Assembly: GCF_005403045.1 (NCBI RefSeq)
Contig: NZ_BJCL01000005.1
Location: forward strand, 248,001-312,000
DNA from: Pseudaquabacterium pictum
GTDB taxonomy: Bacteria; Pseudomonadota; Gammaproteobacteria; Burkholderiales; Burkholderiaceae_C
Length of the DNA stretch: 64,000 nt
Direction of reading: 5' to 3'
The position numbers were made by a program, and so were the translations under genes. This document shows positions 15,399 to 62,785 of this stretch, one piece after another (the first letter of the stretch is position 1; each line of letters opens with the position of its first letter). The notes beneath the pieces are model-generated. The model saw only the letters and a program-made list of their open reading frames with translations, searched no databases and was not told the origin of the DNA.

Positions 15399-15412
15399 AC
15401 TTGAAGAAAGAC

Positions 15413-18165: not shown

Positions 18166-18170
18166 CTGCC

Positions 18171-18698: not shown

Positions 18699-18707
18699 CC
18701 GATCGCC

Positions 18708-43487: not shown

Positions 43488-43641
43488 CCCTGCGCTTGCC
43501 ACAACTTCCCTGCGACAGGGGATGGCGCTGGCGGCCCGCGCCGGTATGATTTCACGCTTCTGGGACGTGGCACGCGCTGGTCGGTCTGCAGGCCGCCGGG
43601 CCCGCCCCCATCACGCCGCATCACGCGGCATGGAGCTCATC

Positions 43642-44223
43642 ATGCTGGCTGCCGCCCCGTTCCGCCCCCACTCCACCACCTGGCGCGCCGCGCTGCGCCG
43701 AACTGCGCTGGCCGGCTGCATGGCCGCCCTGCCGCTGGCTGCACTGGCGGCCGATCCGCCGGTCGACCTGGGCGAGAAAGTGCCCGAAGCCCAGGCCATC
43801 AACGAGGGCCTGTTCCCCGAAGACGCCTGCAAGGAACTGGAGCAGGCCGGCTACAAGTGCATGGGCTTCAAGCCGGCGGTGCGCTTCTCCCTGCCCACGG
43901 CCACCTTCAAGCTCGGCTCGGCCGAACTGCCCGACCTGCTGCGCGCCCAGCTCGACCGCTTTGCCGAGGTGCTGCGCGGCAAGCGCGGCAGCGGCCGCGT
44001 GGTGCGCATCGAGGGCCATGCCGACGCCACCGGCAGCGAGGACGTCAACCTGCCGCTGTCGCAGAAGCGCGCCGAGGCGGTGAAGGAGTATCTGGTCAAG
44101 AACGGCGCCGACCCCGGCATGCTGCAGGCCGTGGGCATGGGCTCGAAGGCGCTGAAGGTGACCAAGGATCCGGCCGCCGCCGAGAACCGCCGCGTCGAGA
44201 TCGGCCGCCAGCAGGCGCCCTGA
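43642..44223 (+). CDS. OmpA-family protein
   Basis: A 193-residue exported protein with a signal peptide (ALRRTALAGCMAALPLAALAA) and a C-terminal OmpA-like peptidoglycan-binding domain (RFSLPTATFKLGSAELPDLLR, IEGHADATGSEDVNLPLSQKRAEAVKEYLVKNG, ENRRVEI). The start ATG 43642 has GGAG 6 nt upstream; ATG 43630 lies over that Shine-Dalgarno site. It precedes the TpsB-TpsA-caspase operon by 108 bp in the same direction and may be part of the same surface system. A TATGAT at 43545-43550 may be its -10 box. Confidence 0.88.
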   Translation: MLAAAPFRPHSTTWRAALRRTALAGCMAALPLAALAADPPVDLGEKVPEAQAINEGLFPEDACKELEQAGYKCMGFKPAVRFSLPTATFKLGSAELPDLLRAQLDRFAEVLRGKRGSGRVVRIEGHADATGSEDVNLPLSQKRAEAVKEYLVKNGADPGMLQAVGMGSKALKVTKDPAAAENRRVEIGRQQAP

Positions 44224-44232
44224 CCACGCGCC

Positions 44233-44252
44233 GCCGCAGCATGCGCTGCGGC
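44233..44252 (+). terminator. Hairpin after the OmpA-like gene
   Basis: GCCGCAGC-ATGC-GCTGCGGC forms a perfect 8-bp stem 9 nt after the stop codon. There is no T-run, so it may be a weak terminator or an RNA-stabilising structure between the OmpA-like and TpsB genes. Confidence 0.4.
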
Positions 44253-44331
44253 ACTGGCAACCCCTGCAATCCCTACGCTGACAGGTCCGAATGCAGGCCG
44301 TTGACGGCAGGCGTTTGGATACCATGCAGTG

Positions 44332-46062
44332 ATGAAAAGTTGGCAGTTGGGGCGGATTTCTGCAGCAGTGCTGGCCGGCGGCCTGGCCGCCGCACCCGCG
44401 CTGGCCCAGCCCGCCGCCGCCACTCCGGCCGATCAGCGCCCCGGCGGCCTGCTGCCCAACCCCGCCGATCTGGCGCCGCGCGCCCCGCTGGCCACCGATG
44501 CCCGCGACCTGCCCGCCCGCCCGGCGCCGCCGCGTGAACTGCAGAAGCCCAGCGGCGACCTGACGCTGGACGTGCGCGGCTTCCGCCTGTCACCCAATGC
44601 GCCGCCGGAGCTGCTGGCTGCCGCGGCCGAACTGCTGGCGCCCTACACCGGCCCGCAGCGTAGCTACGAAGACCTGGTCAACGCCACGGCCGACGTCACC
44701 CGCTTCCTGCAGCGCGAATCAGGCTGGTACCTGGGCTATGCCTACCTGCCCGAGCAGGTGCCCGAGGGCGGCATCGTGCAGATCCAGCTGCTCGAAGGCC
44801 GGCTCGACCGCATCGACCTGCAATGGCCCGAGAGCCTGCCGGTGCAGCGCCGGGTGATCGAGGGCTACCTGGCCCAGCTGCGGCCCGGCGAGATCCTGCG
44901 GGTGCGCGATGTCGAGCGGGTGGTCTTCCTGATCAACGACCTGCGTGGCATCACCGCCCGCTTCGACATCGTGGCCGGTTCGCAGCCGGGCACGGCCTCG
45001 CTGCGCGTCACCGGCCAGCAGGAAGACCGCTGGTCGGGCAAGGCCGATGCCGATGTCAACGGCTCGCGCTTTCTCGGCACCGGCCGGCTGGGCGTGCTGG
45101 TGGCGGCCAACAGCCTGGCCGGGCTGGGTGACGCCTTCACCGCCAGTGTGCTGGCGTCCACCACCGGTGGCCTGGGCTTCGGCCTGCTGAGCTACGCGCT
45201 GCCGGTGGGCAGCAGCGGCCTGAAGCTGGGGGCCTCGCTGTCGGCGGTGCGCTACCAGCTCGACAGCGCCGCCTTCAACGGCCTGGACATCCACGGCGAC
45301 GGCCTGACGCTGAATGCCTATGCGCTGTACCCCTGGGTGCGCTCGCGCAACCTCAACCTGTTCGCCGTGGCCTCGGTCGACCACAAGCGCTACGACGACA
45401 GCACCGGCGGCATCGCCCGCCAGCGCCAGGTCAACAACCTCAGCCTGGGCCTGACAGGCGACCTGCGCGACGACTGGTTCGGCGGCGCGGTCAGCACCTT
45501 CGAGGCCCATGTGGCCAGCGGCGATGTGCGCTACGACGGCGGCCGCCCCGACAGCCTGGACGACGCACCGCGCTTCACCAAGCTGTCGGTGGGCGTGAAC
45601 CGGCTGCAGAACCTGGTCGACGGGCGGCTGCTGCTGTATGCGGCGCTGCGGGGCCAGTGGGCGTTCGACAACCTGGACTCCGGCGAGCAGTTCCGCGTCG
45701 GCGGGCCCGACGGCGTGCGCGCCTTTGCGCCTGGCGAGGGCACCGGCGACAGCGGCATGGTGGTGAGTGCCGAACTGCGCCTGCTGCCCCCGGAAGACTG
45801 GCTGGGCCGTCTGGCCCGCGAGACGGTGTTCAGCGTGTTCGTCGACCACGGTGAACTTCGCTTCCGACAGGACGCCAGCGCCCAAGGCGCGCGCTTCGTC
45901 AACACCGCGCGTTACAGCGGCGCCGGTGTGTCGGTGGCCTGGGAGCGGCCGCGCACCTACACCCTGCGCGTCAGCCTGGCCGGCCGCGTGGCGGGTGAAG
46001 CCCGCTCCGACAAGCGGGTGCGCAATCCGCGGCTGTACGCGCAGTTCACCTACTTCTTCTGA
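44332..46062 (+). CDS. TpsB outer-membrane transporter (ShlB/FhaC/HecB family)
   Basis: A 576-residue two-partner-secretion pore. A signal peptide (GRISAAVLAGGLAAAPALAQ) and a Pro-rich linker precede two POTRA domains (LTLDVRGFRLSPNAPPELLAAAAELLAPYTG; LQWPESLPVQRRVIEGYLAQLRPGEILRV) and a 16-strand barrel. The conserved VRG-type loop is RVGGPDGVRAF and the protein ends in Phe (YAQFTYFF), the signal for BAM insertion. It moves the TpsA protein, encoded 2 bp downstream, across the outer membrane. ATG 44332 was chosen; a GTG one codon earlier is also in frame. Confidence 0.94.
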   Translation: MKSWQLGRISAAVLAGGLAAAPALAQPAAATPADQRPGGLLPNPADLAPRAPLATDARDLPARPAPPRELQKPSGDLTLDVRGFRLSPNAPPELLAAAAELLAPYTGPQRSYEDLVNATADVTRFLQRESGWYLGYAYLPEQVPEGGIVQIQLLEGRLDRIDLQWPESLPVQRRVIEGYLAQLRPGEILRVRDVERVVFLINDLRGITARFDIVAGSQPGTASLRVTGQQEDRWSGKADADVNGSRFLGTGRLGVLVAANSLAGLGDAFTASVLASTTGGLGFGLLSYALPVGSSGLKLGASLSAVRYQLDSAAFNGLDIHGDGLTLNAYALYPWVRSRNLNLFAVASVDHKRYDDSTGGIARQRQVNNLSLGLTGDLRDDWFGGAVSTFEAHVASGDVRYDGGRPDSLDDAPRFTKLSVGVNRLQNLVDGRLLLYAALRGQWAFDNLDSGEQFRVGGPDGVRAFAPGEGTGDSGMVVSAELRLLPPEDWLGRLARETVFSVFVDHGELRFRQDASAQGARFVNTARYSGAGVSVAWERPRTYTLRVSLAGRVAGEARSDKRVRNPRLYAQFTYFF

Positions 46063-46064
46063 CC

Positions 46065-49000
46065 ATGCCCGCCGCCCGCTGCACCAGCCCCCACCGCCCC
46101 CACCGCCTGCGCCGCCTGCGGCCGGTGTGCATGGCCGCGGCCTGGGCGGTGGCGCTGGCGGCGCTGCCCAGCGCCTGGGCCTTGCCCGAAGGCGCGGTGC
46201 CCACGCTGGGCCAGGCCCAGCTGCTGCCGTCGGCGCCGGGCACGCTGCAGATCCTGCAGGGCAGCCAGCGTGCCGGCTTCGACTGGCGCAGCTTCAACAT
46301 CGCCGCCGGCGAGCGGGTGCAGGTGCTGCAGCCCAATGCCCAGGCCATCCTGTTCAACCGGGTGACCGGGGCCGATCCGTCGCTGATCCTGGGCCAGCTG
46401 CAGTCCAACGGCCGGGTGTTCCTGAGCAATCCGCGCGGCATCGTCTTCGGCGCCGGCTCGCAGGTGGACGTGGGCGGCCTGCTGGCCACCACCCTCAGCG
46501 TCAACACCACCGCCCTGGCCGACGGCCGCTGGCAACTGAGCGGCGGTGATGCCGCCACCGGCCTGCTGCGTGCCGACGGCAGCATCCGTGCGCCGGGTGG
46601 CACGGTGGCGCTGGTGGGCCCGCAGCTCAGCGTGGGCGGCAACATCCTGGCCGGCCGGCTGGGCCTGGCGGCGGCCGGCGCCGCGCAGGTGGATGTGGAC
46701 GGCGACGGCCTGATCTTCTTCAACCTGCGCGACGAGAACCTCGCTGCGCGGCTGCAGCTGCTGCCCGCCGCCAGCCTGCTGGCCCGCAGTGCCGAACTGC
46801 GGGCGGCCGCCCGCAGCCAGTTTGCCGACACCGTGCTCAACCTCGAGGGCGTGGTGCGGGCCCAAGGCCTGGTGCAGCAGGACGGCCAGGTGGTGATCGG
46901 CGGCGTGGCGCCGCAGATCCTGGTCGACGGTGGCGCCGGCGTCACCCGCTTGGCCGGCACGCTGGATGCATCGGCCACCGCCACCGGCGAGACCGGCGGC
47001 CAGGTGCGGGTGCTGGGCGAGCGGGTGTGGCTGGACAGCACGGCCCGCATCGATGCCCGCGGCGACGCCGGCGGTGGCCTGGTGCACGTCGGCGGTGCCT
47101 GGCAGGGCGCCGGGCCTGACCGCAATGCGGTGCACACCCGCGTGGTCGCCGGTGCACAGATCGATGCAAGCGCCATCCGCCTGGGCGACGGCGGCCAGGT
47201 GGTGGTGTGGGCCGATGACAGCACGGTGTTCAACGGCCACATCCGCGCCCGCGGCGGCCTGCTGGGCGGCGATGGCGGCGCGGTGGAGACCTCGGGCAAG
47301 CTGCGGCTGGGCATCGGCAGCGGCACGGTGGATGCGGGGGCGGCTGCGGGGTTCCGGTCGGGGCGCTGGTTGCTGGATCCGCTGGACATCAACGTCAAGG
47401 CTCCCGTGGTTCCTAAGGACCCTCCGGATCCCGAGGACCCGATTGGCGTGTCAGATGGCACTGAGGCCTGGAATGACGCGCCGACCACCACGCTGAACAT
47501 CACGCCGGCGGCGTTGCAAAACGCGAAGGCGTTGGTCCTGCTGCAGGCGACCCGCAACATCGGCATTGAAGTTCCGGTGACGCTGACCGAAGCCGGCGCG
47601 ACCTTCACCGCCGAAGCCGGCGGCGATGTCACCATCACCGCCACGGGCGGCATCACCACCACCAACAGCGCCATCACGCTGATCGCCAACCAGAGCTTTG
47701 GCGTTGCACCGCCCGCGACCAGTCCCGCCACGGGAACCGGCCGCGTGGTGGTGCTGGGTGTGCTGGATGCAGGCAGTGCCGGCATCGGCATCGACATGAA
47801 GGGCGGCACGGGTCAGCATGTGCTGGGCGGCAGCTTCAAGGGCGCCAGCCTCACGGTGACCGGCGCGGCCACCCTGGCACCGGCGGTCACCTTCGATGTC
47901 GGCAGCCTGACGCTGGCCGGGGCGGTCACGCTGCCGAACAACAGCACCATCACGGTGGAAACTGGCCGCACGCTGACGATTGCCGGTGCCATCGGCGACG
48001 GTGTCGCGCCGGCCGCGGCGTTCGGCATCACCAAGGCCGGTGCGGGATCGCTGCAGCTGTCAGGCGCCAACACCTACCGCGGCGGGACCATGCTGGCGGA
48101 CGGCACTCTGGTGGCCGGCAGCGTCTCGGCACTGGGCACGGGCAGCGTGACGCTCAACGACGCCGCCGCCACCAGCCTGCAGGTGACCACGAGCGCCACC
48201 GTGGCATCGCTGGCCGGCGGCGGCGGCAGTTCCCTGGGTGTGACGCTCTCGAACGATGTGATCCTCACCACCGGTGAGGCCAGCAGCACCTACAGCGGCA
48301 AGATCACCGCGGGCACGGGCAGCGTGCTGCGCAAGGCGGGCTCTGGCGAGTTCACGTTGGACAGTGCGACGGGCTTCGCCGGTACGACGCAGCTCGTCGG
48401 TGGCACGCTTGCCTTGGACCATGCCGATGCGTTGAAGGACAGCGTGGTCACGCTCAGCAGCACGGCCGCCAGCACGCTGGCAGTGACCGACAGCACCACG
48501 GTGAAATCGCTGGGCGGCGGAGCGTTGGCAGCAGGTCTCGTGCCAGCGCTCGGCAATGTCACGCTGGCCGCCGGCAAGACGCTCACCACCGGTGAGGACA
48601 GCAGCAGCTACAGCGGCACCATCAGCGGCACCGGCACGCTGGAAAAGGCGGGCGCGGGCAACTTCACGCTGAATGGCGCGACCGGCTTCACCGGCGCGAC
48701 GCAGCTCAACGGCGGCACGCTCACGCTGGGCCATGCCGATGCGTTGAAGGACAGCGCCGTCACGCTCAGCAGCACGGCCGCCAGCACGCTGGCGGTGATC
48801 GAGAGCACCACGGTGAAGTCGCTGGGCGGCGGTGCGGTGGCGGCAGGGCTCGTGCCAGCACGCGGCAACGTCACGCTGGCCGCCGGCAAGGTGCTCACCA
48901 CCGGTGAGGACAGCAGCAGCTACAGCGGCACCATCAGCGGCACCGGCACGCTGGAAAAGGCGGGCGCGGGCGACTTCACGCTGAATGGCGCGACCGGCTT

Positions 49001-52000
49001 CACCGGTGCCACGCAGCTCGACGGCGGCACGCTCACGCTGGGCCATGCCGATGCGTTGAAGAACAGCGCCGTCACACTCAGCAGCACGGCCGCCAGCACG
49101 CTGGCGGTGATCGAGAGCACCACGGTGAAGTCGCTGGGCGGCGGTGCGGTGGCGGCAGGGCCCGTGCCAGCACGCGGCAACGTCACGCTGGCCGCCGGCA
49201 AGACGCTCACCACCGGTGAGGACAGCAGCAGCTACAGCGGCACCATCAGCGGCACCGGCACGCTGGAAAAGGCGGGCGCGGGCAACTTCACGCTGAACGG
49301 TGCGACCGGCTTGACCGGTGCCACGCAGCTCAACGGCGGCACGCTCACGCTGGGCCATGCCGATGCGTTGAAGAACAGCGCCGTCACACTCAGCAGCACG
49401 GCCGCCAGCACGCTGGCGGTGATCGAGAGCACCACGGTGAAGTCGCTGGGCGGCGGTGCGGTGGCGGCAGGGCCCGTGCCAGCACGCGGCAACGTCACGC
49501 TGGCCGCCGGCAAGACGCTCACCACCGGTGAGGACAGCAGCAGCTACAGCGGCACCATCAGCGGCACCGGCACGCTCGAAAAGGCGGGCGCGGGCAACTT
49601 CACGTTGAATGGCGCGACCGGCTTCACCGGTGCCACGCAGCTCGACGGCGGCACGCTCACGCTGGGCCATGCCGATGCGTTGAAGGGCAGCGTGGTCACG
49701 CTGAGCAGCACGGCCGCCAGCACGCTGGCGGTGATCGAGAGCACCACGGTGAAGTCGCTGGGCGGCGGTGCGGTGGCGGCAGGGCTCGTGCCAGCACGCG
49801 GCAACGTCACGCTGGCCGCCGGCAAGGTGCTCACCACCGGTGAGGACAGCAGCAGCTACAGCGGCACCATCAGCGGCACCGGCACGCTGGAAAAGGCGGG
49901 CGCGGGCAACTTCACGCTGAATGGCGCGACCGGCTTCACCGGTGCCACGCAGCTCGACGGCGGCACGCTCACGCTGGGCCATGCCGATGCGTTGAAGAAC
50001 AGCGCCGTCACGCTCAGCAGCACGGCCGCCAGCACGCTGGCGGTGATCGAGAGCACCACGGTGAAATCGCTGGGCGGCGGTGCGCCCGCGTTCGGCAACG
50101 TCACGCTGGCCGCCGGCAAGACGCTCACCACCGGTGAGGCCGACAGCAGCTACAGCGGCACCATCAGCGGCACCGGCACGCTGGAAAAGGCGGGCGCGGG
50201 CAACTTCAGGCTGAACGGTGCGACCGGCTTCACAGGCGCGACGCAGCTCAACGGCGGCACGCTCACGCTGGGCCATGCCGATGCGTTGAAGGACAGCGCG
50301 GTCACGCTCGACAGCGCCGAGGCCAACACCCTGCAGGTGGCCGCGAACAGCACCGTGGCATCGCTGGCCGGCGGCGGCGGCAGTTCCCTGGGCGTGACGC
50401 TTGCTGACACGGTCACGCTCACCACCGGAGCTGACAGCAGCACCTACAGCGGCAAGATCACCGCGGGCACGGGCAGCGTGCTGCGCAAGGCCGGTGCCGG
50501 CAACTTCACGCTGAACGGCGCGACCGGCTTCACCGGCGCCACGCTGGTCGACGCCGGCACGTTGACGCTGACGGCCTCGAATGCGCTGGTTGGCAGCACC
50601 GTCACGCTCGGCAGCACCGGCACCAACGCCCTGGTTGTCGCCACCAGCAGCACGCTGGCCGCGGTGGCCGGCGGCGGTGCCGGCAGCACGCTGCAACTGG
50701 ATGACCTGGCCACGCTGACCACCGGCACGGCCAGCAGCCGCTACAGCGGCAGCATCACCGGCGGCGGTCAGCTGCACAAGGTTGGCGGTGGGACTTTCAC
50801 GCTCGCCGGCAGCAACAGCGCTGCCGGCAGCACCACCGTCAGCGCCGGCACCCTGGTGCTGGACGGCACCGGCGCGCTGGCGTCCGGCACCACGCTGGTC
50901 GTCGACGGCAGCGGCAGCCTCGACCTTGGGGACCAACTGCGCAGTCCGGTCCTGCTCACGCTGGACACCACCGGCCAGGTGACCAACGGCCGGTTGCAGG
51001 CCGGCGTGTTCCGGCTGCAGGCCGGCACGCTGGACGCCCGCCTGGAAGGCGGCGGCAGCCTGCAGAAGCAGGGCAGCGGCACCGTCAGCCTGCGGCGCGA
51101 CAACCCGTTCTTCACCGGCCATGCCACCGTGTCCGCGGGCACGCTGTCACTGGATGCCGCGGGCGCGCTGGGGCCGCTGAACCAGGTCACACTCGACGGC
51201 CCGACGCCAGCGCGGCTGGCGGTGAATGCCGACACCACGCTGCGGGCCCTGGCCGGCGGCGCCAACGGCACGGTGGCCATCGACACCGGCGTCACGCTGA
51301 CCAACGGCATCGCCGGTGAGGTGGTCGACACCAGCTTCGCCGGCAGCATCACCGGCGCGGGCCGGTTGACGCAGCAGGGCAGCGGCAGCCTCACGCTGTC
51401 GGGCAGCAACGACTTCACCGGCGGCACCACGCTGACCGCCGGCATCCTGGTGCTGTCCGGCGGCAGCGCGCTGGCCAATGCTGGTGCGGTGCAGGTGGGC
51501 ACGGGCGCGACGCTGCAGCTGGCCGGCAGCGAGACGGTGGGCACGCTGTCGGGCAGCGGCACGGTGGCACTGGGCAGCCACACGCTGACCACCGGCACCG
51601 GCGCCAACAGCAGCTTCAGCGGCAACATCGTCGGCACTGGCAGCACCGGCAGCCTGGTCAAGCAGGGCGGCGGCCGGCTCACCCTCGGCGGCAGCAACCA
51701 GATCGGCGGCGGCACCCGCGTGGCCGCCGGCAGGCTGACCCTGGGCAGCGACGGCGCGCTGGCCGATGGGGCGGCCGTGCAGGTCGACAGCGGCGCCACC
51801 CTGCAGTTGCAGGTGGACGAGACGCTGGCCACCCTGTCGGGCACCGGCACGGTCGACCTGGGCAGCCGCCGGCTGACGCTGGACAGCGCGGCGGCCAACA
51901 GCTTCGGCGGCCGCATCGACGGCAGCGGCAGCCTGCAGTTGCAGGGTGGCGGCAGCCTGCTGCTGTCGGGCCGCAACGGCTACACCGGCGGCACCACGGT

Positions 52001-55000: not shown

Positions 55001-58000
55001 CGGCGCGGCCGACACCCGTTTCGACGGCAGCATCACCGGCGCCGGCATCCTGCGCAAGCTGGGTGGCGGCCGCTTCACCCTGGGCGGCAGCAGCAGCCAC
55101 ACCGGCGGCACGCTGGTCGATGCCGGCACGCTGCAGGGCGACAGCCGCAGCCTGCAGGGTGACATCACCGTGGCGACCCAGCTGGTCTTCGACCAGGCCG
55201 ATGCCGGCACCTACGCTGGCCGGTTGAGCGGTGCCGGCAGCCTGGCCAAGCAGGGCGCCGGCAGCCTGCTGCTGACCGGCGTGCACCAGCACACCGGCGG
55301 CACCGAGGTGCAGGCTGGCACGCTGCGCCTGGCTGGCGGCCAGGCGGTGCCCGATGCGGGCGCGGTGTCCATCGCCGCCGGCGCCAATCTGCAGGTCGAG
55401 GCCAATGAAACCCTGGCCCGCCTGACGGGCAACGGCGCCGTGCAGCTGCTGCCCGGTACCACGCTGACGCTGGGCGACGCCACCGACACGCGCTTCGACG
55501 GCACGCTGGCCGGCAGCGGCGCACTGGTCAAGCAGGGCAGCGGGCAGCTGACGCTGGCCGGCGTCAGCGGTCACAGCGGCAGCACCCTGGTGCAGGCCGG
55601 CCGCCTGACCCTGGACGCGCTGGACGTGCTGGCCGACAGCACCGTCACCCTGGCGGGCGCGGCCGACGTGGCGCTGCAGCTGCTGGGCGATGCCCGCATC
55701 GGCGCGCTGGCCAGCACCGACGGCCCGGGCACGCCGGTGGTGGCGCTGGGCAGCTTCGAGCTGGCCGCCGGCGGCAACGGCGCCAGCACCCGCTTCGCCG
55801 GCCGCACCGAGGGCATTGGCCGCCTGGTCAAGCAGGGCGGCGGCGTGCTGACGCTGGCCGCCGAGAACGGCCACACCGGCACCACCCAGTTGCAGGCCGG
55901 CAGCCTGGTGCTGGCCGGTGGTCAGACACTCGCGCTGGCCAGCGCGCTGCAGATCGACGCGGGCGCCACCCTGGTGCTGGCCGCGCCCCAGACGGTGGGG
56001 ACGCTGACTGGGGCCGGTGCGGTGCAGCTGGGGGCCTTCCAGCTGACCAGCCGCACCGATGAAGACAGCCTGTTTGCCGGCCAGATCAGCGGCAGCGCCG
56101 GCCTCGTCAAGCAGGGCAGCGGCCGGCTCACGCTGGGCGGCAGCAACCTGTTCTCCGGCATGACCGAGGTGCAGCAGGGCACGCTGGCCCTGGCCGGCGG
56201 CGCGGCCCTGGCCGACAGCGTCACCCTGCAGATCGGCGATGCCGGCACGGTGGTGGCCAGCGGCAGCGAAACAGTGGGCGCTCTGGCCGGCAGCGGCGCC
56301 CTGGTGCTGGAGGCCGGCCGCTTCACCACCGGTGGCAGCGGCAGCAGCAGCTTCAGCGGCACCATCACCGGCAGCGGCGAGCTGGCCAAGGCGGGCACCG
56401 GCACGCTCACGCTGTCCGGCGCCAACAGCCACACCGGCGGTCTGGCCCTGCTGGGCGGCACGCTGGCCGTGGCCGCTGACAACGCCCTGGGCGCGGTGCC
56501 CGATGCCGGCACGCCAGCCAACCTGCTGTTCGATGGGGGCACCTTGCAGGCCACCGGCAGTTTCGGCATCGCCGCGGCCCGCCAGCTGCTGCTGCAGGGT
56601 GCGGGCGGCACGCTGCAGGTCGACGCCGGCCACACCCTCACGCTGCCGGCCACGCTGGCCGACGGCAGCAGCGCCGGCAGCCTCAGCAAGACCGGCGCCG
56701 GCACGCTGGCCCTGACAGCCGCCACCGACAGTGCCCGCAGCGGCAGCACCTTGGTGCAGGCCGGCACGCTGGCGCTGCAGCGCGACGGCCAACTCGGCTT
56801 GCCGGCTGGCGCACTCGTGCTGGACGGCGGCACGCTGCAGGTCGACACCAATCTGCGCCTGGCCGATGCGCGCACGCTGCAGCTGGGCGCGGCCGGCGGC
56901 ACGCTGGCCGTGGGCGGCGGTGCCACGCTGGCGCTGGCCGGCCTGGTGACCGACCAGCCAGGCGCCAGCGGCGGCGCCCTGGCCAAGACCGGCGCCGGCC
57001 AGCTGCTGCTGGACGGCGCGTTCGACAACACCTACACCGGCGCCACGCTGCTGCGTGGCGGCAGGCTGGCGCTGCAGCGCGACGGCCAGCTCGGCACCGC
57101 GCCGGCCGAGGCCACGCCGGGGCAGCTGTTCATCGACGGCGCCACCTTGCAGGTCGGCGGCGACACCGTGCTGGCCGCCAGCCGCGGCCTGGCCGTGGGC
57201 GGCGCCGGCGCCACGCTGGAGGTGGCAGACGGCCGCGCGCTGACGCTGGCTGGCGCCATCGGCGATGCCGTCGGCGCCAGGGGCGGCACCGTCACCAAGG
57301 CCGGCGGCGGCCTGCTGCGTCTGCAGGGCAGCGCGCCCAGCAGCCACACCGGCGCCACCCAGGTGCTGGCCGGCACGCTGGCGCTGTCGGCCGATACCCA
57401 GCTGGGCGCGGTGCCCGGCCTGGCCACGCCGGGCCATCTGCTGCTCGATGGCGGCACGCTGCTGGTCGATGCCGGCTTCACGCTGGATGCCCGCCGCGGC
57501 CTGCAGCTGGGTGCCGGCGGTGGCGTGGTCGACGTGGTGGCCAGTCAGCAGCTGGCCTACGCCGGCGTGCTGGCAGGCACGGTCGATCCGGCACAGGGTG
57601 CCCTCACCAAGACCGGTGAGGGCCGCCTGGCACTGTCCGGCGACAACACCTACGCCGGTGCCACCCGGGTGCGCGGCGGCACGCTGGCCATCCAGGGCGA
57701 TGCCCAGCTCGGCAGCGCGCCAGCCACCGGCACGCCGGGCCACCTGCTGCTGGACGGCGGCACGCTGGCCGTTGGCGCCAGCACCACGCTGGCCGCCAGC
57801 CGCGGCATCGCGCTGGGCGCCGGTGCTGCGGTGCTGGATGTGGCCACCGGCGCGAATGTGTCCTACGGCGGTGCGCTGGCCGATGCGCCGGGCGTGACCG
57901 GCGGCTTCGACAAGGCCGGCGGTGGCAGCCTGGTGCTGGGCGGCGTCTCCAGCCACACCGGCACCACCCGGGTGCTGGCCGGCACCCTGGCCACCGGCGG

Positions 58001-61000
58001 CGACCAGCGCCTGCCCGCGGCCGGCGCGGTGCTGCTGGCCAACCAGGCCAGCCTGGTGCTGGGCGGCCACCAGACCCTGGCCGTGCTGGGCGATGCCCCC
58101 AATCCCGGCGGCGCCCCGGCCGATGGCAGCGCCCTGGTCGACCTGGGCGGTTTCACGCTGCGGCTGGACACCGGCGCTGGCGACGAGCGCTCGTTCTACA
58201 GCGGCGCCGTCACCGGCACCGGTGGCCAGCTGCTGAAGCAGGGCGGCGGCACGCTGCAGCTGGCCGGCAGCGGCGCCGGCCGCAACCTGGTGACGGTGGA
58301 CGACGGCCTGCTGGTCAGCCTGGGCAGCAACAGCCTGTCGGCTGGCGCCGAGGTGAGGGTGGCGCCCGGCGCCGCGCTGCGGCTGATGGCGCCGGTGGCG
58401 GTGCAGTCGCTCGATCTGTCCGGCCGTCTGTCCGGCCCGGGCGGGCTGACGGCCAGCAGCCATGTGGACCTGCGGGATGCGGCGGTCGACACCACCGTGG
58501 CCACGCCGGTGCTGCGCAGCCAGGGCAGCAGCCAGATCCAAGCCGCGGTGCAGGCCGACAGCAGCACCGTGACCGGCGGCACGCTGACGCTGGGCGCCGG
58601 CGGCAGCCTGACCAGCACCGCGCTGGCCGTGCAGGGCGGCGGCACGCTGGCCACCCAGGCGACCGGCCAGCTGCTTGGCCGGCCGGCGGTGGTGGTGGAC
58701 AACGGCACCTTGCAGCTGGCCGGCGCCGAGCAGGTGGCCACGCTGCGGCTGGCCGGCACGCTGGCCGGCAGCGGCAGCCTGCTGGTCGATGGCGCTGCCA
58801 CGCTGCAAGACGCCACCGTGCGGGCCGCGCTGGATGCCGCCACCCTGCGCAGCAGCGGCGACACCTTGCTGGGTGCAGCGGTGGTGGCCCGCGACAGCGC
58901 CACCCTGGCCGGCGGCCGCCTGACGCTGTCCGACAGTGGCCGCCTCACCACCCCCTTGCTGACGCTGGAAGCCGGCACGCTGGCCACCGGGGCGACCCCG
59001 GCCCTGTCCACGGGCAGCCGCCTGGTGGTGCAGCGCGATGCCACGCTGCTGCTGGGTGCTGACCAGCGCCTGGCCAGCCTGGACCTGGCCGGCACGCTGG
59101 GCGCGCCGGCCGTGGCGCCTGCCGAAGTGGCGCCGGATGGCCAGCAGCGCGCGCTGGCCGATGCCGGCCCCGCGGCGCAGCTGCTGGTCGACGGCGCGGT
59201 GGCGCTGGACGGCGCCAGCGTCTTCACCCCGCTGACCGCGGCCACCCTGACGACCAGCGGCGCCACCACCCTGGCGGCGCCGGTGCAGGCCGCCGTTGGC
59301 ACCACGGTGGCCGGCGGCCTGCTGACCGTGGCGGCCAGCGGCCTGCTCACCACGCCCAGCCTGCAGGTGCAGGCCGGCGGCGTGGCCACCGGCGGCAGCC
59401 AGCGGCTGCAGGCCGACACCCAGCTGGCCCTGGCAGCCGGCACCACGCTGGCGCTGGGTGGTGACCAGACATTGGCCCGCCTGGCCGACCTCGGTGCCGG
59501 CGGCACGGCGGCCCAGGTGCAGCTGGGCAGCTTCACCCTGGCCGCGGGCGCCGACGGCAGCGACACGGTGTTCAGCGGCCGCTTCAGCGGCGACGGCACC
59601 GTGGCCAAGCAGGGCAGCGGCACCTGGCTGCTGCGCAGCGACCAGGCCCATGGCGACACCCGCATCGAGGCCGGCACGCTGCAGCTGGGCGACGGCGGCA
59701 GCAGCGGCAGCCTGGGCCGCGGCGCGGTGGTCAATGACGGCCTGCTGCGCTTCCAGCGCGACGACGCGGTGCGCCTGACGCAGGATGTGAGCGGCAGCGG
59801 CAGCCTGCAGCAGGCCGGCAGCGGCAGCCTCAGCCTGGCCAGCACCGGCCTGCGCTACACCGGCGACACCGTCGTCACGGCCGGCAGCCTGGGTACCGAG
59901 GGTGCCGACCGCCTGCCCGATGCCAGCCACCTGCGCCTGGCCGCCGGCGCCAGGCTGGCCACCGGTGGCGACGACCGGCTGGGTGCCTTGACGGCCGACG
60001 GCGCCGTCAGCCTGGGCGGCAGCCTGGCCAGCACCGGCGACCAGGTCTACAACGCCGCTGTCACCGTGACCGGCGGCGCGCCCATCACGCTGTCAGCCCC
60101 GAATGCCCGCATCGAGGCCGTGCATGCCGGCAACCAGTGGGGCAGCCAGCCGCTGTCGGTCGATGCCGGCGTGCTGCTGCTGGGTGCCGGCCGCGCCAGC
60201 GCCGCGGCCGATGCCGCCTGGAACCCGCTCATCCTCGGCCAGGTGACGCTGCGGGGCGCTGCAGGCGCGCCGGGCAGCCAGGTCGATGCCGGCACGCTGC
60301 AGATCGGCGCGCCGGTGGCCGCTGGCGCCGCTGCCCGCGGCGATGCCCGGCTGGACGGCCTGCTCGACCTGCGCGCCGGCAGCAGCCTGGCGCTGCGCGC
60401 CCATGCCACGCCCGGTTACCAGGCGCCGGTGGCGGTGCCCGGCGAGGCGGTCGCCGTCGACCCCCTGGGCGGCCGCCAGATCGTGCTGGCCGACGACACG
60501 CTGTGGCAAAACACCCACAGCCTGGTGCGCAGCGAGGTGGGCGCCAGCCTGCAGCTGCAGGCCGTGGCCGGCGGTTCCATCCGGCTGGGCCAGGCCACCA
60601 ACCGGCTGGAGGGCACGGTGTCGGCACTCAGCGGCAGCGCCTTCAACGCCGCCTGGAAGCCCGTCGACGTCGAGCGCGGGCGGCTGGCCGGGCAGTCCAG
60701 CATCACGCTGGCCGGCCAGGTGGTGCAGGTGGGCGGTGGTGGTGTCGAGGCCGATGTGCTGCGCCTGACCGTCGGCCGACTGGGCACCGAGGCCGGCAGC
60801 CCGCTGGCCGCCCGCCTTTGGTACAACGACGCCAGCTTCGGCCAGCAGCGCTCGCTGCCCGGTCTGCAGATCACCCTGCTGCCCGAGGCCCTGGCCGTGC
60901 CGGCCAGCCTGGGCAGCTTCGACCAGCCGGTGCAGGTGCGGGTGGGCGCGCTGGACACCGGCGGCCGCACCGAGGGCCTGAACGCCGGCTATGTGCAGCT

Positions 61001-61370
61001 GCTGCCCAAGCGCGCGGCCGGCGGCGCCGCGGTGTTCCTGGCCGGGCCCAAGGTGGGGCAGGCGGCCTACAGCTTCTTCCAGGACGGCGCGGGCGATGTG
61101 TCCGAGGTGCCGCTGTTCTACAACAACGTGCTGCCGGCCACGCCGCAGTTGGCCGGCTCGCTGTCGGCCGTGGCCTCGGTGTCGGAGACGGCGCGGCGCG
61201 AGCGCTTCGACGAGACGGTGCGCACCGAGAACGTGGCCATCCGCCTGCGTGCCGGCGTGATCGCCGAGGTCGGCCCGGGCCGGCCGGCCACCCAGGGCAC
61301 GCAGGGCATCCGCCTGCCATCCAGCTGCAGCAGCGTGGGCAATTTGCTCGGCTGCGGAGGCACGCCGTGA
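46065..61370 (+). CDS. Giant TpsA exoprotein with filamentous-hemagglutinin N-domain and PATR-type beta-helix repeats
   Basis: A 5101-residue secreted adhesin-like protein. An extended signal peptide (cleavage after SAWA, residue 39) is followed by the TPS domain starting LPEGAVPTLGQ, with the NPRGIVFG motif at 122-129 that TpsB recognises. To about residue 450 it is FHA-like, ending GRWLLDPLDINV. A short Pro/Asp linker (VPKDPPDPEDP) leads to dozens of degenerate autotransporter-associated beta-strand repeats (units such as GSGSLVKQGAGTLTLGG, SHTGGTTV, AGTLRLAGG), predicting a very long beta-helix. Residues about 745-1412 are near-identical 104-residue repeats. The last 15 residues carry the only two cysteines I noticed in the mature protein (CSSVGNLLGC), like the anchoring loop of HMW1. 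Probable role is adhesion or aggregation. Confidence 0.93.
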   Translation: MPAARCTSPHRPHRLRRLRPVCMAAAWAVALAALPSAWALPEGAVPTLGQAQLLPSAPGTLQILQGSQRAGFDWRSFNIAAGERVQVLQPNAQAILFNRVTGADPSLILGQLQSNGRVFLSNPRGIVFGAGSQVDVGGLLATTLSVNTTALADGRWQLSGGDAATGLLRADGSIRAPGGTVALVGPQLSVGGNILAGRLGLAAAGAAQVDVDGDGLIFFNLRDENLAARLQLLPAASLLARSAELRAAARSQFADTVLNLEGVVRAQGLVQQDGQVVIGGVAPQILVDGGAGVTRLAGTLDASATATGETGGQVRVLGERVWLDSTARIDARGDAGGGLVHVGGAWQGAGPDRNAVHTRVVAGAQIDASAIRLGDGGQVVVWADDSTVFNGHIRARGGLLGGDGGAVETSGKLRLGIGSGTVDAGAAAGFRSGRWLLDPLDINVKAPVVPKDPPDPEDPIGVSDGTEAWNDAPTTTLNITPAALQNAKALVLLQATRNIGIEVPVTLTEAGATFTAEAGGDVTITATGGITTTNSAITLIANQSFGVAPPATSPATGTGRVVVLGVLDAGSAGIGIDMKGGTGQHVLGGSFKGASLTVTGAATLAPAVTFDVGSLTLAGAVTLPNNSTITVETGRTLTIAGAIGDGVAPAAAFGITKAGAGSLQLSGANTYRGGTMLADGTLVAGSVSALGTGSVTLNDAAATSLQVTTSATVASLAGGGGSSLGVTLSNDVILTTGEASSTYSGKITAGTGSVLRKAGSGEFTLDSATGFAGTTQLVGGTLALDHADALKDSVVTLSSTAASTLAVTDSTTVKSLGGGALAAGLVPALGNVTLAAGKTLTTGEDSSSYSGTISGTGTLEKAGAGNFTLNGATGFTGATQLNGGTLTLGHADALKDSAVTLSSTAASTLAVIESTTVKSLGGGAVAAGLVPARGNVTLAAGKVLTTGEDSSSYSGTISGTGTLEKAGAGDFTLNGATGFTGATQLDGGTLTLGHADALKNSAVTLSSTAASTLAVIESTTVKSLGGGAVAAGPVPARGNVTLAAGKTLTTGEDSSSYSGTISGTGTLEKAGAGNFTLNGATGLTGATQLNGGTLTLGHADALKNSAVTLSSTAASTLAVIESTTVKSLGGGAVAAGPVPARGNVTLAAGKTLTTGEDSSSYSGTISGTGTLEKAGAGNFTLNGATGFTGATQLDGGTLTLGHADALKGSVVTLSSTAASTLAVIESTTVKSLGGGAVAAGLVPARGNVTLAAGKVLTTGEDSSSYSGTISGTGTLEKAGAGNFTLNGATGFTGATQLDGGTLTLGHADALKNSAVTLSSTAASTLAVIESTTVKSLGGGAPAFGNVTLAAGKTLTTGEADSSYSGTISGTGTLEKAGAGNFRLNGATGFTGATQLNGGTLTLGHADALKDSAVTLDSAEANTLQVAANSTVASLAGGGGSSLGVTLADTVTLTTGADSSTYSGKITAGTGSVLRKAGAGNFTLNGATGFTGATLVDAGTLTLTASNALVGSTVTLGSTGTNALVVATSSTLAAVAGGGAGSTLQLDDLATLTTGTASSRYSGSITGGGQLHKVGGGTFTLAGSNSAAGSTTVSAGTLVLDGTGALASGTTLVVDGSGSLDLGDQLRSPVLLTLDTTGQVTNGRLQAGVFRLQAGTLDARLEGGGSLQKQGSGTVSLRRDNPFFTGHATVSAGTLSLDAAGALGPLNQVTLDGPTPARLAVNADTTLRALAGGANGTVAIDTGVTLTNGIAGEVVDTSFAGSITGAGRLTQQGSGSLTLSGSNDFTGGTTLTAGILVLSGGSALANAGAVQVGTGATLQLAGSETVGTLSGSGTVALGSHTLTTGTGANSSFSGNIVGTGSTGSLVKQGGGRLTLGGSNQIGGGTRVAAGRLTLGSDGALADGAAVQVDSGATLQLQVDETLATLSGTGTVDLGSRRLTLDSAAANSFGGRIDGSGSLQLQGGGSLLLSGRNGYTGGTTVLAGTLRLAGSEALADTGTLHLATGSTLALDARETVGTLSGAGAVALGSHALTVRATADASFIGNIGGGGSLVKEGAALLSLGGNNTQLGGTTVAGGALQVDSNARLGAATAPLVLDGGTLRAGDFQTLDLGSARPVVIGSSGGTLETAFGATLTVAGAVSGSGSLAKQGSGTLRLQGNNSSFTGSLALQGGVLRASGGQALPDAGTVSLANFSTLAVDATETLGQLSGNGTVVLATGSLLRLGTAADGRFDGSIGGDGGLVKQGAGTLTLGGINTQSGRTEVLQGTLAVASDASLGSSLAGLRLDGGRLRLTAAGLVQLPATRGLEIGDAGGTVEVAAASAQLDLLGALSGAGTLRKQGAGSLRLAGAGSGFGGGIDLAAGTLRLDGGQALPDATSLVLAAGSLLRIDADEQLGQLSGTGSVLLGSGARLTLGTAADASFGGSFSGTGSLAKVGSGALTLAGASSHSGGTSVLRGRLRISSDSQLGEAAGALTLDGGVLATTGNSPVALAAGRTVVVGMAGGTLETTATAGLTLAGPLSGSGRLTKQGAGELALAGNGSSYGGAVAVQAGQLALQNTTALGAGNDVQLDTGTQLRVARNVSLASLAGTGLATLDAGTTLTTGFGSSRFDGVLAGDGALHKQGVGTLTLAGTNTLRGGATLDAGTLHLLGGQALPDDTALAIGGGVLQVSATERLGTLSGAGGVVLDNGSQLTIGTGTSASFSGSFSGAGSLVKQGTGTLTLAGSSSHDGGTTVAAGALVVSADAALGAATAPLTLDGGRLRATGGGTVALAAQRRVVVDDGGGTLAADAGTTLRLDGPLSGGGNLVKAGAGTLALAGANPGFSGAVQLSAGTLALQQTGALGAANAVAVAVGSTLDLGADVRLGPLSGAGAVQLHGFTLAAGGGSGTFSGTLGGSPDAVLQWLGGGQLSLTGVTGFAGSTQVLGGTLALAQADVLADSPVSVAPGATLAVLASSRVQSLAQPGDAGGAVQLAAGATLSTGGAADTRFDGSITGAGILRKLGGGRFTLGGSSSHTGGTLVDAGTLQGDSRSLQGDITVATQLVFDQADAGTYAGRLSGAGSLAKQGAGSLLLTGVHQHTGGTEVQAGTLRLAGGQAVPDAGAVSIAAGANLQVEANETLARLTGNGAVQLLPGTTLTLGDATDTRFDGTLAGSGALVKQGSGQLTLAGVSGHSGSTLVQAGRLTLDALDVLADSTVTLAGAADVALQLLGDARIGALASTDGPGTPVVALGSFELAAGGNGASTRFAGRTEGIGRLVKQGGGVLTLAAENGHTGTTQLQAGSLVLAGGQTLALASALQIDAGATLVLAAPQTVGTLTGAGAVQLGAFQLTSRTDEDSLFAGQISGSAGLVKQGSGRLTLGGSNLFSGMTEVQQGTLALAGGAALADSVTLQIGDAGTVVASGSETVGALAGSGALVLEAGRFTTGGSGSSSFSGTITGSGELAKAGTGTLTLSGANSHTGGLALLGGTLAVAADNALGAVPDAGTPANLLFDGGTLQATGSFGIAAARQLLLQGAGGTLQVDAGHTLTLPATLADGSSAGSLSKTGAGTLALTAATDSARSGSTLVQAGTLALQRDGQLGLPAGALVLDGGTLQVDTNLRLADARTLQLGAAGGTLAVGGGATLALAGLVTDQPGASGGALAKTGAGQLLLDGAFDNTYTGATLLRGGRLALQRDGQLGTAPAEATPGQLFIDGATLQVGGDTVLAASRGLAVGGAGATLEVADGRALTLAGAIGDAVGARGGTVTKAGGGLLRLQGSAPSSHTGATQVLAGTLALSADTQLGAVPGLATPGHLLLDGGTLLVDAGFTLDARRGLQLGAGGGVVDVVASQQLAYAGVLAGTVDPAQGALTKTGEGRLALSGDNTYAGATRVRGGTLAIQGDAQLGSAPATGTPGHLLLDGGTLAVGASTTLAASRGIALGAGAAVLDVATGANVSYGGALADAPGVTGGFDKAGGGSLVLGGVSSHTGTTRVLAGTLATGGDQRLPAAGAVLLANQASLVLGGHQTLAVLGDAPNPGGAPADGSALVDLGGFTLRLDTGAGDERSFYSGAVTGTGGQLLKQGGGTLQLAGSGAGRNLVTVDDGLLVSLGSNSLSAGAEVRVAPGAALRLMAPVAVQSLDLSGRLSGPGGLTASSHVDLRDAAVDTTVATPVLRSQGSSQIQAAVQADSSTVTGGTLTLGAGGSLTSTALAVQGGGTLATQATGQLLGRPAVVVDNGTLQLAGAEQVATLRLAGTLAGSGSLLVDGAATLQDATVRAALDAATLRSSGDTLLGAAVVARDSATLAGGRLTLSDSGRLTTPLLTLEAGTLATGATPALSTGSRLVVQRDATLLLGADQRLASLDLAGTLGAPAVAPAEVAPDGQQRALADAGPAAQLLVDGAVALDGASVFTPLTAATLTTSGATTLAAPVQAAVGTTVAGGLLTVAASGLLTTPSLQVQAGGVATGGSQRLQADTQLALAAGTTLALGGDQTLARLADLGAGGTAAQVQLGSFTLAAGADGSDTVFSGRFSGDGTVAKQGSGTWLLRSDQAHGDTRIEAGTLQLGDGGSSGSLGRGAVVNDGLLRFQRDDAVRLTQDVSGSGSLQQAGSGSLSLASTGLRYTGDTVVTAGSLGTEGADRLPDASHLRLAAGARLATGGDDRLGALTADGAVSLGGSLASTGDQVYNAAVTVTGGAPITLSAPNARIEAVHAGNQWGSQPLSVDAGVLLLGAGRASAAADAAWNPLILGQVTLRGAAGAPGSQVDAGTLQIGAPVAAGAAARGDARLDGLLDLRAGSSLALRAHATPGYQAPVAVPGEAVAVDPLGGRQIVLADDTLWQNTHSLVRSEVGASLQLQAVAGGSIRLGQATNRLEGTVSALSGSAFNAAWKPVDVERGRLAGQSSITLAGQVVQVGGGGVEADVLRLTVGRLGTEAGSPLAARLWYNDASFGQQRSLPGLQITLLPEALAVPASLGSFDQPVQVRVGALDTGGRTEGLNAGYVQLLPKRAAGGAAVFLAGPKVGQAAYSFFQDGAGDVSEVPLFYNNVLPATPQLAGSLSAVASVSETARRERFDETVRTENVAIRLRAGVIAEVGPGRPATQGTQGIRLPSSCSSVGNLLGCGGTP
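48297..50300 (+). repeat. 312-bp tandem repeat array inside the TpsA gene
   Basis: Units beginning with codons for GTISGTGTLEKAGAG start at 48615, 48927, 49239, 49551, 49863 and 50157. Spacing is 312 bp (104 residues) four times and then 294 bp, because one unit lacks six residues before FGNVTL. A more diverged first unit (GKITAGTGSVLRKAGSG) begins at 48297 and is 318 bp. The sixth copy diverges after about 50300. The middle units are almost identical at the nucleotide level, much closer than the rest of the gene, which indicates recent expansion or gene conversion. Confidence 0.92.
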
Positions 61371-62776
61371 TGCGGCCGGCCGATCCCACCCGCCGGCGCA
61401 TCGTGCAGGCCGGGCTGGCCGCCGCGCTGGGCGGCCCGGCGCTGGGGGGGGCCGGGCTGGCGCGTGCCCAGGACGACGCGCCGCCGGATCCGGGCCGCCT
61501 GGCCCTGGTGATCGGCAACCGCGAGTACCCGGCCGGTTTCGATCTGCCGTCGATCCACACCAACGCCCGCGTGGTGCAGGCGGCGCTCGGCCGGCGTGGC
61601 TTCCAGACCAGCACCGTGCTCGATGCCGACCCCGGCGCCGCGCGCAACGCCGTCGAGCGCTTCGCCGCCGCCGCCCAGGCCGCGCCGCCCGACGCCACGC
61701 TGCTCTTCTACTTCAGCGGCCATGGCCTGCAGGTGGACGCCGACAACCTGCTGGTCGGCGCAGGCGTGCGGCCCGATGCGGCGGCCGATGCCCTGCTGCG
61801 TGGCAGCCTGTCGCTCAACCGCGACCTGCTGGCGCGCCTGCCGCGCCGGCCGCAGGGGCTGACGGTGCTGGTGATCGACGCCTGCCGCACCGACCTGAAG
61901 CCCAGCGTCCGCGGCGTGGACGGCTTCAACCAGGTGGAGGCACCGCCGGGCTGCCTGATCGCCTTCTCCACCGGTGCCGGCAAGCCGGCCATCGCACCCA
62001 AGGCCGAGACCGACACCACCTTCTACACCGGCGCCCTGGTGCAGCAGTTGCAGACGGCGTCGGACGAGTTGTCGTTTCCCGACCTGTTCCGCCTGGTCAA
62101 GCTGGACGTGCAGCGCCGCATGCTGGGCCACCCGGTGTCGGCGGTGCGGCGGTTTGCGCAGTTCCCGTTCATCGCCGACAACAGCAGTGCGCCGATCCCT
62201 GTGGCCTCGGCCCGGCAGCTGGCGGCGGTGCGCGCCCGCGCCAGCGCCGAGGAGCAGGCCCGCGCCGCGCTGGCCCGCGCCGCCGAGGATGCCGACTTCA
62301 ACGCGCTGCAGGCCACGCTGTGGCCACCGGAGCTGCTGCGCCAGGCCGAGGCCTTCCGCCGCAACTGGCCGGCCAGCGCCCGCGCCGGCGCCGCCGAGGT
62401 GGCGGCCGAGGGCGCACGCGAGGCCGCCGGCATCCTGCGCAGCAACGATGTGCGGCTGTACCGCCGCTCCTTCGACCCGGCGCCCGAGCGTGGCGAGGTC
62501 TACAACGGCGATCTGCGGCGTGCCGCCCGCGGCGACAAGGACGCCGCCGCCCGCGTCGGCCGCCAGTGGGCCACGACGGCGCGCAGCGGCCCGGCGCTGT
62601 CGGGCTACGAGGGCTGGATGCAGTACGCCGCCGAGCTGGGCAACGGCATCGCCAGCTACGAGCTGGCGCTGCACTACCGCCGCCTCGACCAGCCCCAGCC
62701 CGCTGCCCGCTGGGAAGCCCGCGCCCGCGAGCTGGGCTACAACCCGCCGCCGTCGCTGGAGCACTACCGCAAGTAG
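61370..62776 (+). CDS. Exported caspase-like (C14) peptidase of the TPS operon
   Basis: A 468-residue protein. The leader DPTRRRIVQAGLAAALGG resembles a twin-arginine signal with cleavage near ARAQ. The caspase-fold domain (residues 42-270) has RLALVIGNREYP, the catalytic His118 in YFSGHGLQVD and Cys172 in LVIDACRTDL. The C-terminal 180 residues are Ala/Arg-rich helices ending in a Sel1/TPR-like stretch (GWMQYAAELGNGIASYELALHYRR). The ATG shares one base with the TpsA stop codon (TGATG), so translation is coupled. It may process the giant exoprotein or control its secretion; this is inference. Similar metacaspase-type proteins occur beside some other TPS loci. Confidence 0.88.
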   Translation: MRPADPTRRRIVQAGLAAALGGPALGGAGLARAQDDAPPDPGRLALVIGNREYPAGFDLPSIHTNARVVQAALGRRGFQTSTVLDADPGAARNAVERFAAAAQAAPPDATLLFYFSGHGLQVDADNLLVGAGVRPDAAADALLRGSLSLNRDLLARLPRRPQGLTVLVIDACRTDLKPSVRGVDGFNQVEAPPGCLIAFSTGAGKPAIAPKAETDTTFYTGALVQQLQTASDELSFPDLFRLVKLDVQRRMLGHPVSAVRRFAQFPFIADNSSAPIPVASARQLAAVRARASAEEQARAALARAAEDADFNALQATLWPPELLRQAEAFRRNWPASARAGAAEVAAEGAREAAGILRSNDVRLYRRSFDPAPERGEVYNGDLRRAARGDKDAAARVGRQWATTARSGPALSGYEGWMQYAAELGNGIASYELALHYRRLDQPQPAARWEARARELGYNPPPSLEHYRK

Positions 62777-62785
62777 TGCCGCCGG

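What the first reader, a model, noticed from the sequence alone, without database searches (positions are those of the whole stretch)
44332..62776. Two-partner-secretion operon that includes its own caspase-like peptidase
TpsB, a 5101-residue TpsA and a caspase-fold protein are packed with a 2-bp gap and a 1-base overlap. TPS systems are normally TpsB plus TpsA only. A translationally coupled C14 peptidase with intact His118 and Cys172 suggests a dedicated protease or a regulated processing/release step for the exoprotein, possibly a new secretion-processing module. An OmpA-like gene upstream and a LytTR two-component pair downstream may complete it.
Basis: partly seen in the sequence, partly recalled or inferred. 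Interest (0 to 1): 0.78.

Follow-up and report, generated by a model that had tools for sequence, protein, structure and literature searches.

The report
Giant surface protein with own caspase
A giant secreted bacterial protein, its outer-membrane exporter and a caspase-like protease are made from one gene cluster; across related genomes the protease goes with a conserved tail of the giant protein, which suggests that it cuts or releases that protein.

Summary
In detail: TpsB, a 5101-aa TpsA and a 468-aa C14 caspase-fold protein lie in tandem with a 2-bp gap and a 1-base overlap. The C14 belongs to a distinct full-length family. In 299 genomes of the bacterial family, 18 have it, and all 18 also have a conserved ~117-residue TpsA C-tail, found in 19; in 17 of 18 the tail lies directly upstream. 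Where the C14 sits elsewhere, behind ClpV of type VI secretion (T6SS) in Limnobacter-type genomes, the tail is still present in 5 of 5 searched. The one tail genome without this C14 has a decayed tail. The tail ends in a Cys pair; in 17 of 17 long TpsA frames no other Cys lies between residue 250 and the last 60. The C14 has an invariant His/Cys dyad, a twin-arginine N-terminus, and Asn where ordinary C14s have Asp. Best reading: a periplasmic protease cuts a cysteine-hooked TpsA tail, as LapG does for CdrA. Cleavage is untested.

The parts
43642..44223 (+). OmpA-like protein (ORF opens at 43522; the ATG at 43642 gives a signal-peptide-like start, my reading); likely accessory
   Evidence: Pfam OmpA 3.8e-19; homologues upstream of TpsB in G012, G004, G495, G592, G526 and next to TssK in T6SS loci
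44332..46062 (+). TpsB outer-membrane transporter (ShlB/FhaC family)
   Evidence: Pfam ShlB 2.8e-20, POTRA_2 2.1e-7; homologues before the tail TpsAs
46065..61370 (+). TpsA exoprotein, 5101 aa
   Evidence: TPS domain, TIGR01901, 30 PATR stretches; cysteines only at residues 6, 22, 5088, 5097
46185..46907 (+). TPS secretion domain of TpsA (residues 41-281)
   Evidence: PF05860 7e-29
48264..50570 (+). 312-bp tandem repeat array inside TpsA
   Evidence: Tandem Repeats Finder, 6.6-7.5 copies
61014..61367 (+). conserved C-terminal tail of TpsA (residues 4984-5101), proposed protease recognition region and anchor
   Evidence: A2 alignment of 18; genome searches
61221..61292 (+). core motif RTENVAxRLRxGVIAEVGPGRPAT (residues 5053-5076)
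   Evidence: degenerate in G644, which lacks this C14
61326..61355 (+). C-terminal cysteine pair Cys5088/Cys5097, proposed cysteine hook
   Evidence: at least two Cys in 32 of 32 tails read to the stop, one of them a copy; no other Cys between residue 250 and the last 60 in 17 of 17 long TpsA frames
61370..62776 (+). C14 caspase-fold peptidase with N-terminal twin-arginine motif and C-terminal helical domain (residues about 281-467)
   Evidence: Pfam C14 8.4e-23; model pLDDT 82.9, pTM 0.84; Foldseek best match MALT1 paracaspase 4.6e-10
61562..61564 (+). Asn65, family-specific residue at the place of Asp in ordinary C14 proteins
   Evidence: N in 37 of 38 family rows; D in 30 of 31 ordinary C14 rows
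61721..61723 (+). catalytic His118
   Evidence: 38 of 38
61883..61885 (+). catalytic Cys172
   Evidence: 38 of 38

Best explanation
A two-partner secretion operon with its own maturation protease. TpsB exports TpsA; the TpsA C-tail stays in the periplasm, held by a disulfide loop of its last two cysteines (cysteine hook). The caspase-fold peptidase, folded in the cytoplasm and exported through Tat, recognises the tail (RTENVAxxLRxGVIAEVG) and cuts it, which releases the giant exoprotein or fixes how much stays on the surface. Shown by sequence: gene order, tail-protease co-occurrence, dyad, twin-arginine motif, cysteine distribution, residue 65. Inferred: periplasmic place, disulfide, cleavage, release. 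In most genomes that have T6SS and could be judged, the module lies in or beside a type VI secretion locus; the window's genome has no TssK and so seems to have kept the module without T6SS.
For: Co-occurrence 18 of 18 in 299 genomes (own genome included), adjacency 17 of 18 (hypergeometric P 5.6e-28, not corrected for kinship). Same three genomes of 399 at order level (G000, G026, G081) for the C14 at E below 1e-150 and for the tail. Genomes with the two apart still carry the tail, 5 of 5 (one of them is G026 again). G644: decayed tail core and no separate C14. Divergent G671:C1 pair: a 30% C14 directly after a TpsA with a correspondingly divergent tail. Tail and C14 distances correlate, Mantel r 0.81, 0 of 5000 permutations, 35 pairs. 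Dyad 38 of 38; twin-arginine. Cys pair in 32 of 32 tails and no other Cys between residue 250 and the last 60 in 17 of 17 long frames. Known parallels: C-terminal disulfide in a periplasmic domain needed for anchoring (PMC8151025, passages); LapG cuts CdrA near its C-terminus and frees it, and a truncated CdrA without the presumed hook cysteines is always released (PMC11898600, passages; PMC5422565, passages).
Against: No cleavage, secretion or localisation data. Co-inheritance as one operon explains part of the correlation and of the co-occurrence; no kinship correction was made. A1 and A2 contain rows from some of the genomes searched (in the order set also G026 and G081). The genome search scores only part of its candidates per genome (for the tail 15 or 11), so missed tails are possible. 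The tail model is of low confidence (pLDDT 60.8), its helix included. Tat export rests on a motif, not on a predictor. In Limnobacter types the C14 lies far from TpsA; in G026 the tail ORF lacks a TPS domain, and in G704 and G706 the tail loci look decayed. The Asp-to-Asn change leaves the cleavage-site residue unpredictable.
Confidence: 0.6

Rival explanations
1. The C14 is a sorting transpeptidase: it cuts the tail and joins TpsA to an envelope acceptor, like a sortase.
For: The tail is a short conserved C-terminal signal with a strongly conserved core; caspase-fold sorting enzymes exist in type IX secretion (recalled).
Against: No acceptor or ligation gene was identified; the Cys pair already offers an anchor; paracaspase-type relatives are hydrolases (recalled).
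Confidence: 0.12
2. The C14 does not cut TpsA for release but serves quality control or secretion assistance, for example clearing stalled TpsA, or serves the neighbouring T6SS.
For: In Limnobacter types it directly follows ClpV; the module sits beside T6SS genes in many genomes.
Against: It is kept where TssK is absent (G000, G012, G004), and all C14-positive genomes of the family set have the tail while not all have TssK.
Confidence: 0.14
3. The tail inhibits or activates the C14, which is itself the active product (a secreted or surface protease or toxin).
For: Some caspase-like domains act as toxins in polymorphic toxin systems (PMC3482391, passages); eight ORFs in seven of 25 genomes carry both a TPS domain and a C14 domain.
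Against: The separate C14 shows no TPS domain for export by TpsB, and the tail has a cysteine pair suited to anchoring.
Confidence: 0.06
4. Linkage only: the genes travel together as an island without acting on each other.
For: Both are patchy in distribution and often sit in one T6SS locus.
Against: Co-occurrence persists when unlinked; tail core decayed and C14 absent together in G644; only one tail was found per genome although most of the 25 genomes have further TPS systems.
Confidence: 0.05

Closest known systems
CdrA-CdrB with LapG (Pseudomonas aeruginosa)
   Same: TPS adhesin thought to be held by a C-terminal cysteine hook and cut near its C-terminus by a periplasmic protease, which releases it (passages of PMC11898600, PMC5422565)
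   Different: LapG is of another protease family (recalled) and is regulated by c-di-GMP; here the protease is C14 and is encoded in the TPS operon
FhaB processing by DegP, CtpA and SphB1 (Bordetella)
   Same: Stepwise C-terminal processing of a TpsA by periplasmic and surface proteases (abstract of PMC8263021)
   Different: SphB1 is encoded outside the fhaB-fhaC locus (passage of PMC5422565); DegP and CtpA are general proteases (recalled); no caspase fold (recalled)
HMW1 TPS system
   Same: Has a third, co-transcribed partner, HMW1C (PMC8151025, passages); some TpsAs have a C-terminal anchoring disulfide (same paper)
   Different: The third partner is a glycosyltransferase, not a protease
Ordinary bacterial C14 proteins / orthocaspases; paracaspase MALT1 as nearest solved structure
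   Same: C14 domain, His/Cys dyad, D-A-C-R motif
   Different: Asn for Asp at position 65, twin-arginine leader, C-terminal helical domain without Pfam match, fixed TpsA partner
TPS-C14 fusion ORFs in the same bacterial family
   Same: Caspase domain joined to a TPS exoprotein, e.g. G000:C8, 1853-aa frame
   Different: C14 in cis; the one read (G000:C8) has an NDV stretch with Asp and a DSCYSG active-site motif, a different C14 type

Membership tests
Two-partner secretion (type Vb) | TpsB with POTRA and ShlB barrel next to TpsA with TPS domain | tested here: met
Two-partner secretion (type Vb) | TpsA exported through its TpsB | not testable with these tools
   needs an experiment
C14 (caspase-fold) peptidases | C14 domain, His/Cys dyad, caspase fold | tested here: met
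C14 (caspase-fold) peptidases | Acidic residue at position 65 as in ordinary bacterial C14s (its role in the S1 pocket is inferred from recalled paracaspase numbering; not needed for C14 membership) | tested here: not met
   N in 37 of 38, C in one; D in 30 of 31 ordinary C14 rows, the 31st (L002) read in a wrong frame by my script
C14 (caspase-fold) peptidases | Proteolytic activity | not testable with these tools
   dyad intact; activity not shown
LapG-type adhesin release | Member of the LapG protease family | tested here: not met
   only C14 matched in Pfam; works like it, is not a member
LapG-type adhesin release | Cysteine-hooked TpsA C-tail | tested here: inconclusive
   Cys pair present and alone; disulfide not shown
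Contact-dependent inhibition (CDI) | C-terminal toxin domain in TpsA | tested here: not met
   only TPS and PATR in Pfam, TpsA scanned in three pieces
Contact-dependent inhibition (CDI) | Immunity gene after TpsA | tested here: not met
   next gene is a C14 peptidase with a twin-arginine leader
Type VI secretion cluster component | T6SS present in the window's genome | tested here: not met
   no TssK (PF05936) in G000; other T6SS genes were not searched there
Tat substrates | Twin arginines followed by a hydrophobic stretch | tested here: met
   RR in 33 of 38 aligned rows; GRR further upstream in L065, L067, L069, L070; L226 is cut by a contig end; no predictor run

The most novel reading that the evidence does not exclude
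A contact module born in T6SS loci: a cysteine-hooked giant TPS filament and a tail-specific caspase-fold protease whose S1 pocket is recast (Asp to Asn) to read one tail, so that filament release is timed with T6SS attack; some lineages, the window's among them, kept the filament-release pair after losing T6SS.
Probability: 0.3. Interest if true: 0.87.

Novelty: new variant of a known kind. Interest (0 to 1): 0.74.

Why it matters
[quoted passage not shown] this operon would be an exception, repeated across Burkholderiales. It also proposes a defined substrate for a family of bacterial caspase homologues, through a short tail that can be tested directly. The T6SS linkage would tie a surface filament to contact-dependent attack.

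Tried and rejected
LytTR pair as part of the module: among the module loci scanned it follows the C14 only in the window and in G010. CDI system: no toxin domain in TpsA and no immunity gene. T6SS as a requirement: G000, G012, G004 and G010 lack TssK (G010 is 70% complete). Sel1/TPR naming of the C14 C-terminal domain: no Pfam match up to E 10 in the three C-terminal pieces scanned (window, L033, L068). Promoter and terminator scans: nothing found in 43300-46400 or 61000-64000; not informative for a high G+C genome. Solved relatives of the tail region: none convincing (best E 0.86). Second aligner library pdb_via: not available. Prior report of this module: not found in ten paper searches (listings capped, open-licence papers only); PMC3501461 was seen only as four passages, and its text search counted no 'adhesi' or 'autotransporter'. 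PMC10778856 (T5SS and other secretion systems) was seen only as passages, with no count for 'caspase' or 'gene cluster'.

Rows dropped or weak: the dyad count left out L219 (copy of L176) and L037 (3' fragment). In one search the row L002 was translated in a wrong frame and counted as a gap; some of the 17 long TpsA frames there are cut at the 5' end by a locus or contig end. L219 is also a copy among the 32 tails. G703 and G026 are the same genome by coordinates. L053, L059, L060, L064 and L066 repeat contigs already seen as G011:C139, G004, G010, G011:C57 and G026, and L056 and L063 are contigs of G601 and G446 (by coordinates or contig length). L070's genome was not held, so not searched. 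A1 contains rows from G000, G004 and G012, and A2 at least rows from G000, G004, G012, G601 and G446, all of them in the 299-genome set; A1 also holds G026 and A2 holds G081, both in the 399-genome set. The position-65 comparison used ordinary C14s that came up in searches with this family's own profile, plus four from the window's genome.
Full report
Observation. The window holds, on the plus strand, OmpA (43642-44223), TpsB (44332-46062), TpsA (46065-61370, 5101 aa) and a C14 protein (61370-62776, 468 aa). Gaps are 108 bp, 2 bp and a 1-base overlap (4 bases if GTG 61367 is the start). Pfam and NCBIfam agree with these assignments, except that NCBIfam has no model for TpsB and only a sub-cut-off caspase match for the C14. 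A LytTR response regulator lies beyond, on the minus strand.

The C14 is a distinct family. A search of 40 genomes (own and relatives) gave full-length or split matches at 46-92% identity in 8 genomes besides G000. Aligned over 38 members (copy L219 and fragment L037 left out), His118 and Cys172 are invariant. The N-terminus carries RR plus a hydrophobic stretch in 33 of 38; L065, L067, L069 and L070 have GRR further upstream and L226 is cut by a contig end. The model (pLDDT 82.9, pTM 0.84) has a caspase fold closest to MALT1 paracaspase and a helical C-terminal domain; pieces of that domain from three members match nothing in Pfam up to E 10. Position 65 is Asn in 37 of 38 and Cys in the divergent L187; 30 of 31 ordinary C14 rows have Asp, the 31st being mis-framed. 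By recalled paracaspase numbering this is an S1 residue, so specificity is probably changed.

The tail. TpsAs before these C14s share a C-terminal ~117 residues; among the first 18 rows TENV, GVI and two cysteines are invariant (12 longer rows). Later members vary slightly in the core, e.g. TENA in L195/L196 and GVV in L192 and the Limnobacter types, but at least two cysteines are present in 32 of 32 tails read to the stop, exactly two in 31 (L219 is a copy). The window TpsA has cysteines only at 6, 22, 5088 and 5097. In 17 of 17 TpsA frames over 2500 aa no cysteine lies between residue 250 and the last 60. The tail model is of low confidence: a helix (176-211 of 250), partly under pLDDT 50, then an end under 50.

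Co-occurrence. Of 299 family genomes, G000 included, 18 have the C14 (E at most 1e-50) and 19 the tail (E at most 1e-5); the 18 are within the 19. In 17 the tail lies directly upstream on the same strand; in G673 the two lie at contig ends. Hypergeometric P is 5.6e-28, not corrected for kinship, and both alignments contain rows from some of these genomes. The extra genome, G644, has a tail that keeps the cysteines but has lost the TENVAxRLRxGVIAEVG core; its only C14 at E 1e-6 is in a TPS-C14 fusion frame. Of 399 order genomes, three have the C14 at E below 1e-150 and the same three have the tail; 34 more have only ordinary C14 matches, best E 1e-30 to 1e-38. Of the 18 loci, 11 have the tail upstream, 6 follow a ClpV gene (in 5 of them with more T6SS genes before it) and 1 is a 3' fragment. 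Five of those six genomes could be searched, one of them the same as G026: all five carry the tail elsewhere, in G705 weakly (E 5e-7) on a small separate frame after TpsB. A second operon in G671 has a 30% C14 and a divergent but recognisable tail; it is the only such C14 in 299 genomes. Pair distances of C14 and tail correlate (r 0.81, 0 of 5000 permutations, 35 pairs); co-inheritance contributes to this. In 25 genomes there are 70 TPS-domain hits but one A2 tail per genome (the search scores only part of its candidates). G011, outside those 25, has two tail-C14 pairs.

T6SS linkage. Of 30 genomes 24 have TssK. In 11 the tail or C14 shares a contig with nearby T6SS genes (G446, G495, G590, G598, G642, G663, G081, G011, G702, G704, G705; in G011 this is one of two copies, in G704 the T6SS genes are fragments); in 7 the TpsB and the start of TpsA do so and run off the contig (G492, G565, G592, G601, G670, G671, G700), so their identity as the tail TpsA is inferred; in 6 it cannot be told (G002, G008, G009, G526, G673, G644). 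Reading together by eye, 14 of 70 TPS hits lie within 35 kb of TssK: 13 tail-type (six of them by the same inference) and one other in G081. G000, G012, G004, G010, G026 and G706 lack TssK. The C14 tree puts the Limnobacter-type members in one clade (99/98) and scatters the T6SS-flanked TPS members over several branches (the groups were set before searches showed more linked genomes, and some branches are long).

Mechanism. The nearest functional parallel is CdrA and LapG: a TPS adhesin with a presumed cysteine hook, cut near its C-terminus by a periplasmic protease (passages). Other TpsAs have a C-terminal disulfide needed for anchoring (passage). FhaB is processed by DegP, CtpA and SphB1 (abstract). 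I therefore propose that the C14 cuts the hooked tail to release TpsA. Cleavage, place and release are inferred. Rivals are ligation, quality control or T6SS service, tail-controlled protease, and mere linkage.

Novelty. [quoted passage not shown] Ten paper searches found no report of this module.

Noticed in passing
L051 (G000:C8), also G004:C6, G004:C39, G012:C1, G590:C2, G492:C13, G644:C74, G601:C16: Single frames with both a TPS domain and a C14 domain: 8 frames in 7 of 25 genomes. In the window's own genome the dyad residues are present (YAGHG, DSCYSG).
   Followed up: partly
L047 (G009:C161) 12839-19790: Another order: OmpA, a 746-aa C14 protein, a 236-aa protein, TpsB, TpsA; the C14 has NDA, i.e. 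Asp, at the place of Asn65 by my reading.
   Followed up: partly
L212 (G705:C12), minus strand 4139-4732: A small frame (197 codons) carries a partial tail core and Cys pair right after TpsB, apart from any long TpsA: a possible mini-substrate.
   Followed up: partly
L184 (G026), L210 (G706), L211 (G704): Tail loci that look decayed in Limnobacter types: G026 has a tail frame without TPS domain, G704 a VgrG-like stretch run together with a TpsA tail (gene decay or assembly fault).
   Followed up: partly
L187 (G671:C1) 9614-16409: Second TpsB-TpsA-C14 operon with YDG repeats in TpsA, a 30% C14 and a divergent tail; the only such member in 299 genomes.
   Followed up: partly
window 20229-20370: Two head-to-tail copies of a 72-bp unit, 98% matching.
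   Followed up: no
L023 (G007:C49) 1501-2253: A weak C14 match whose frame has one TAG inside.
   Followed up: no
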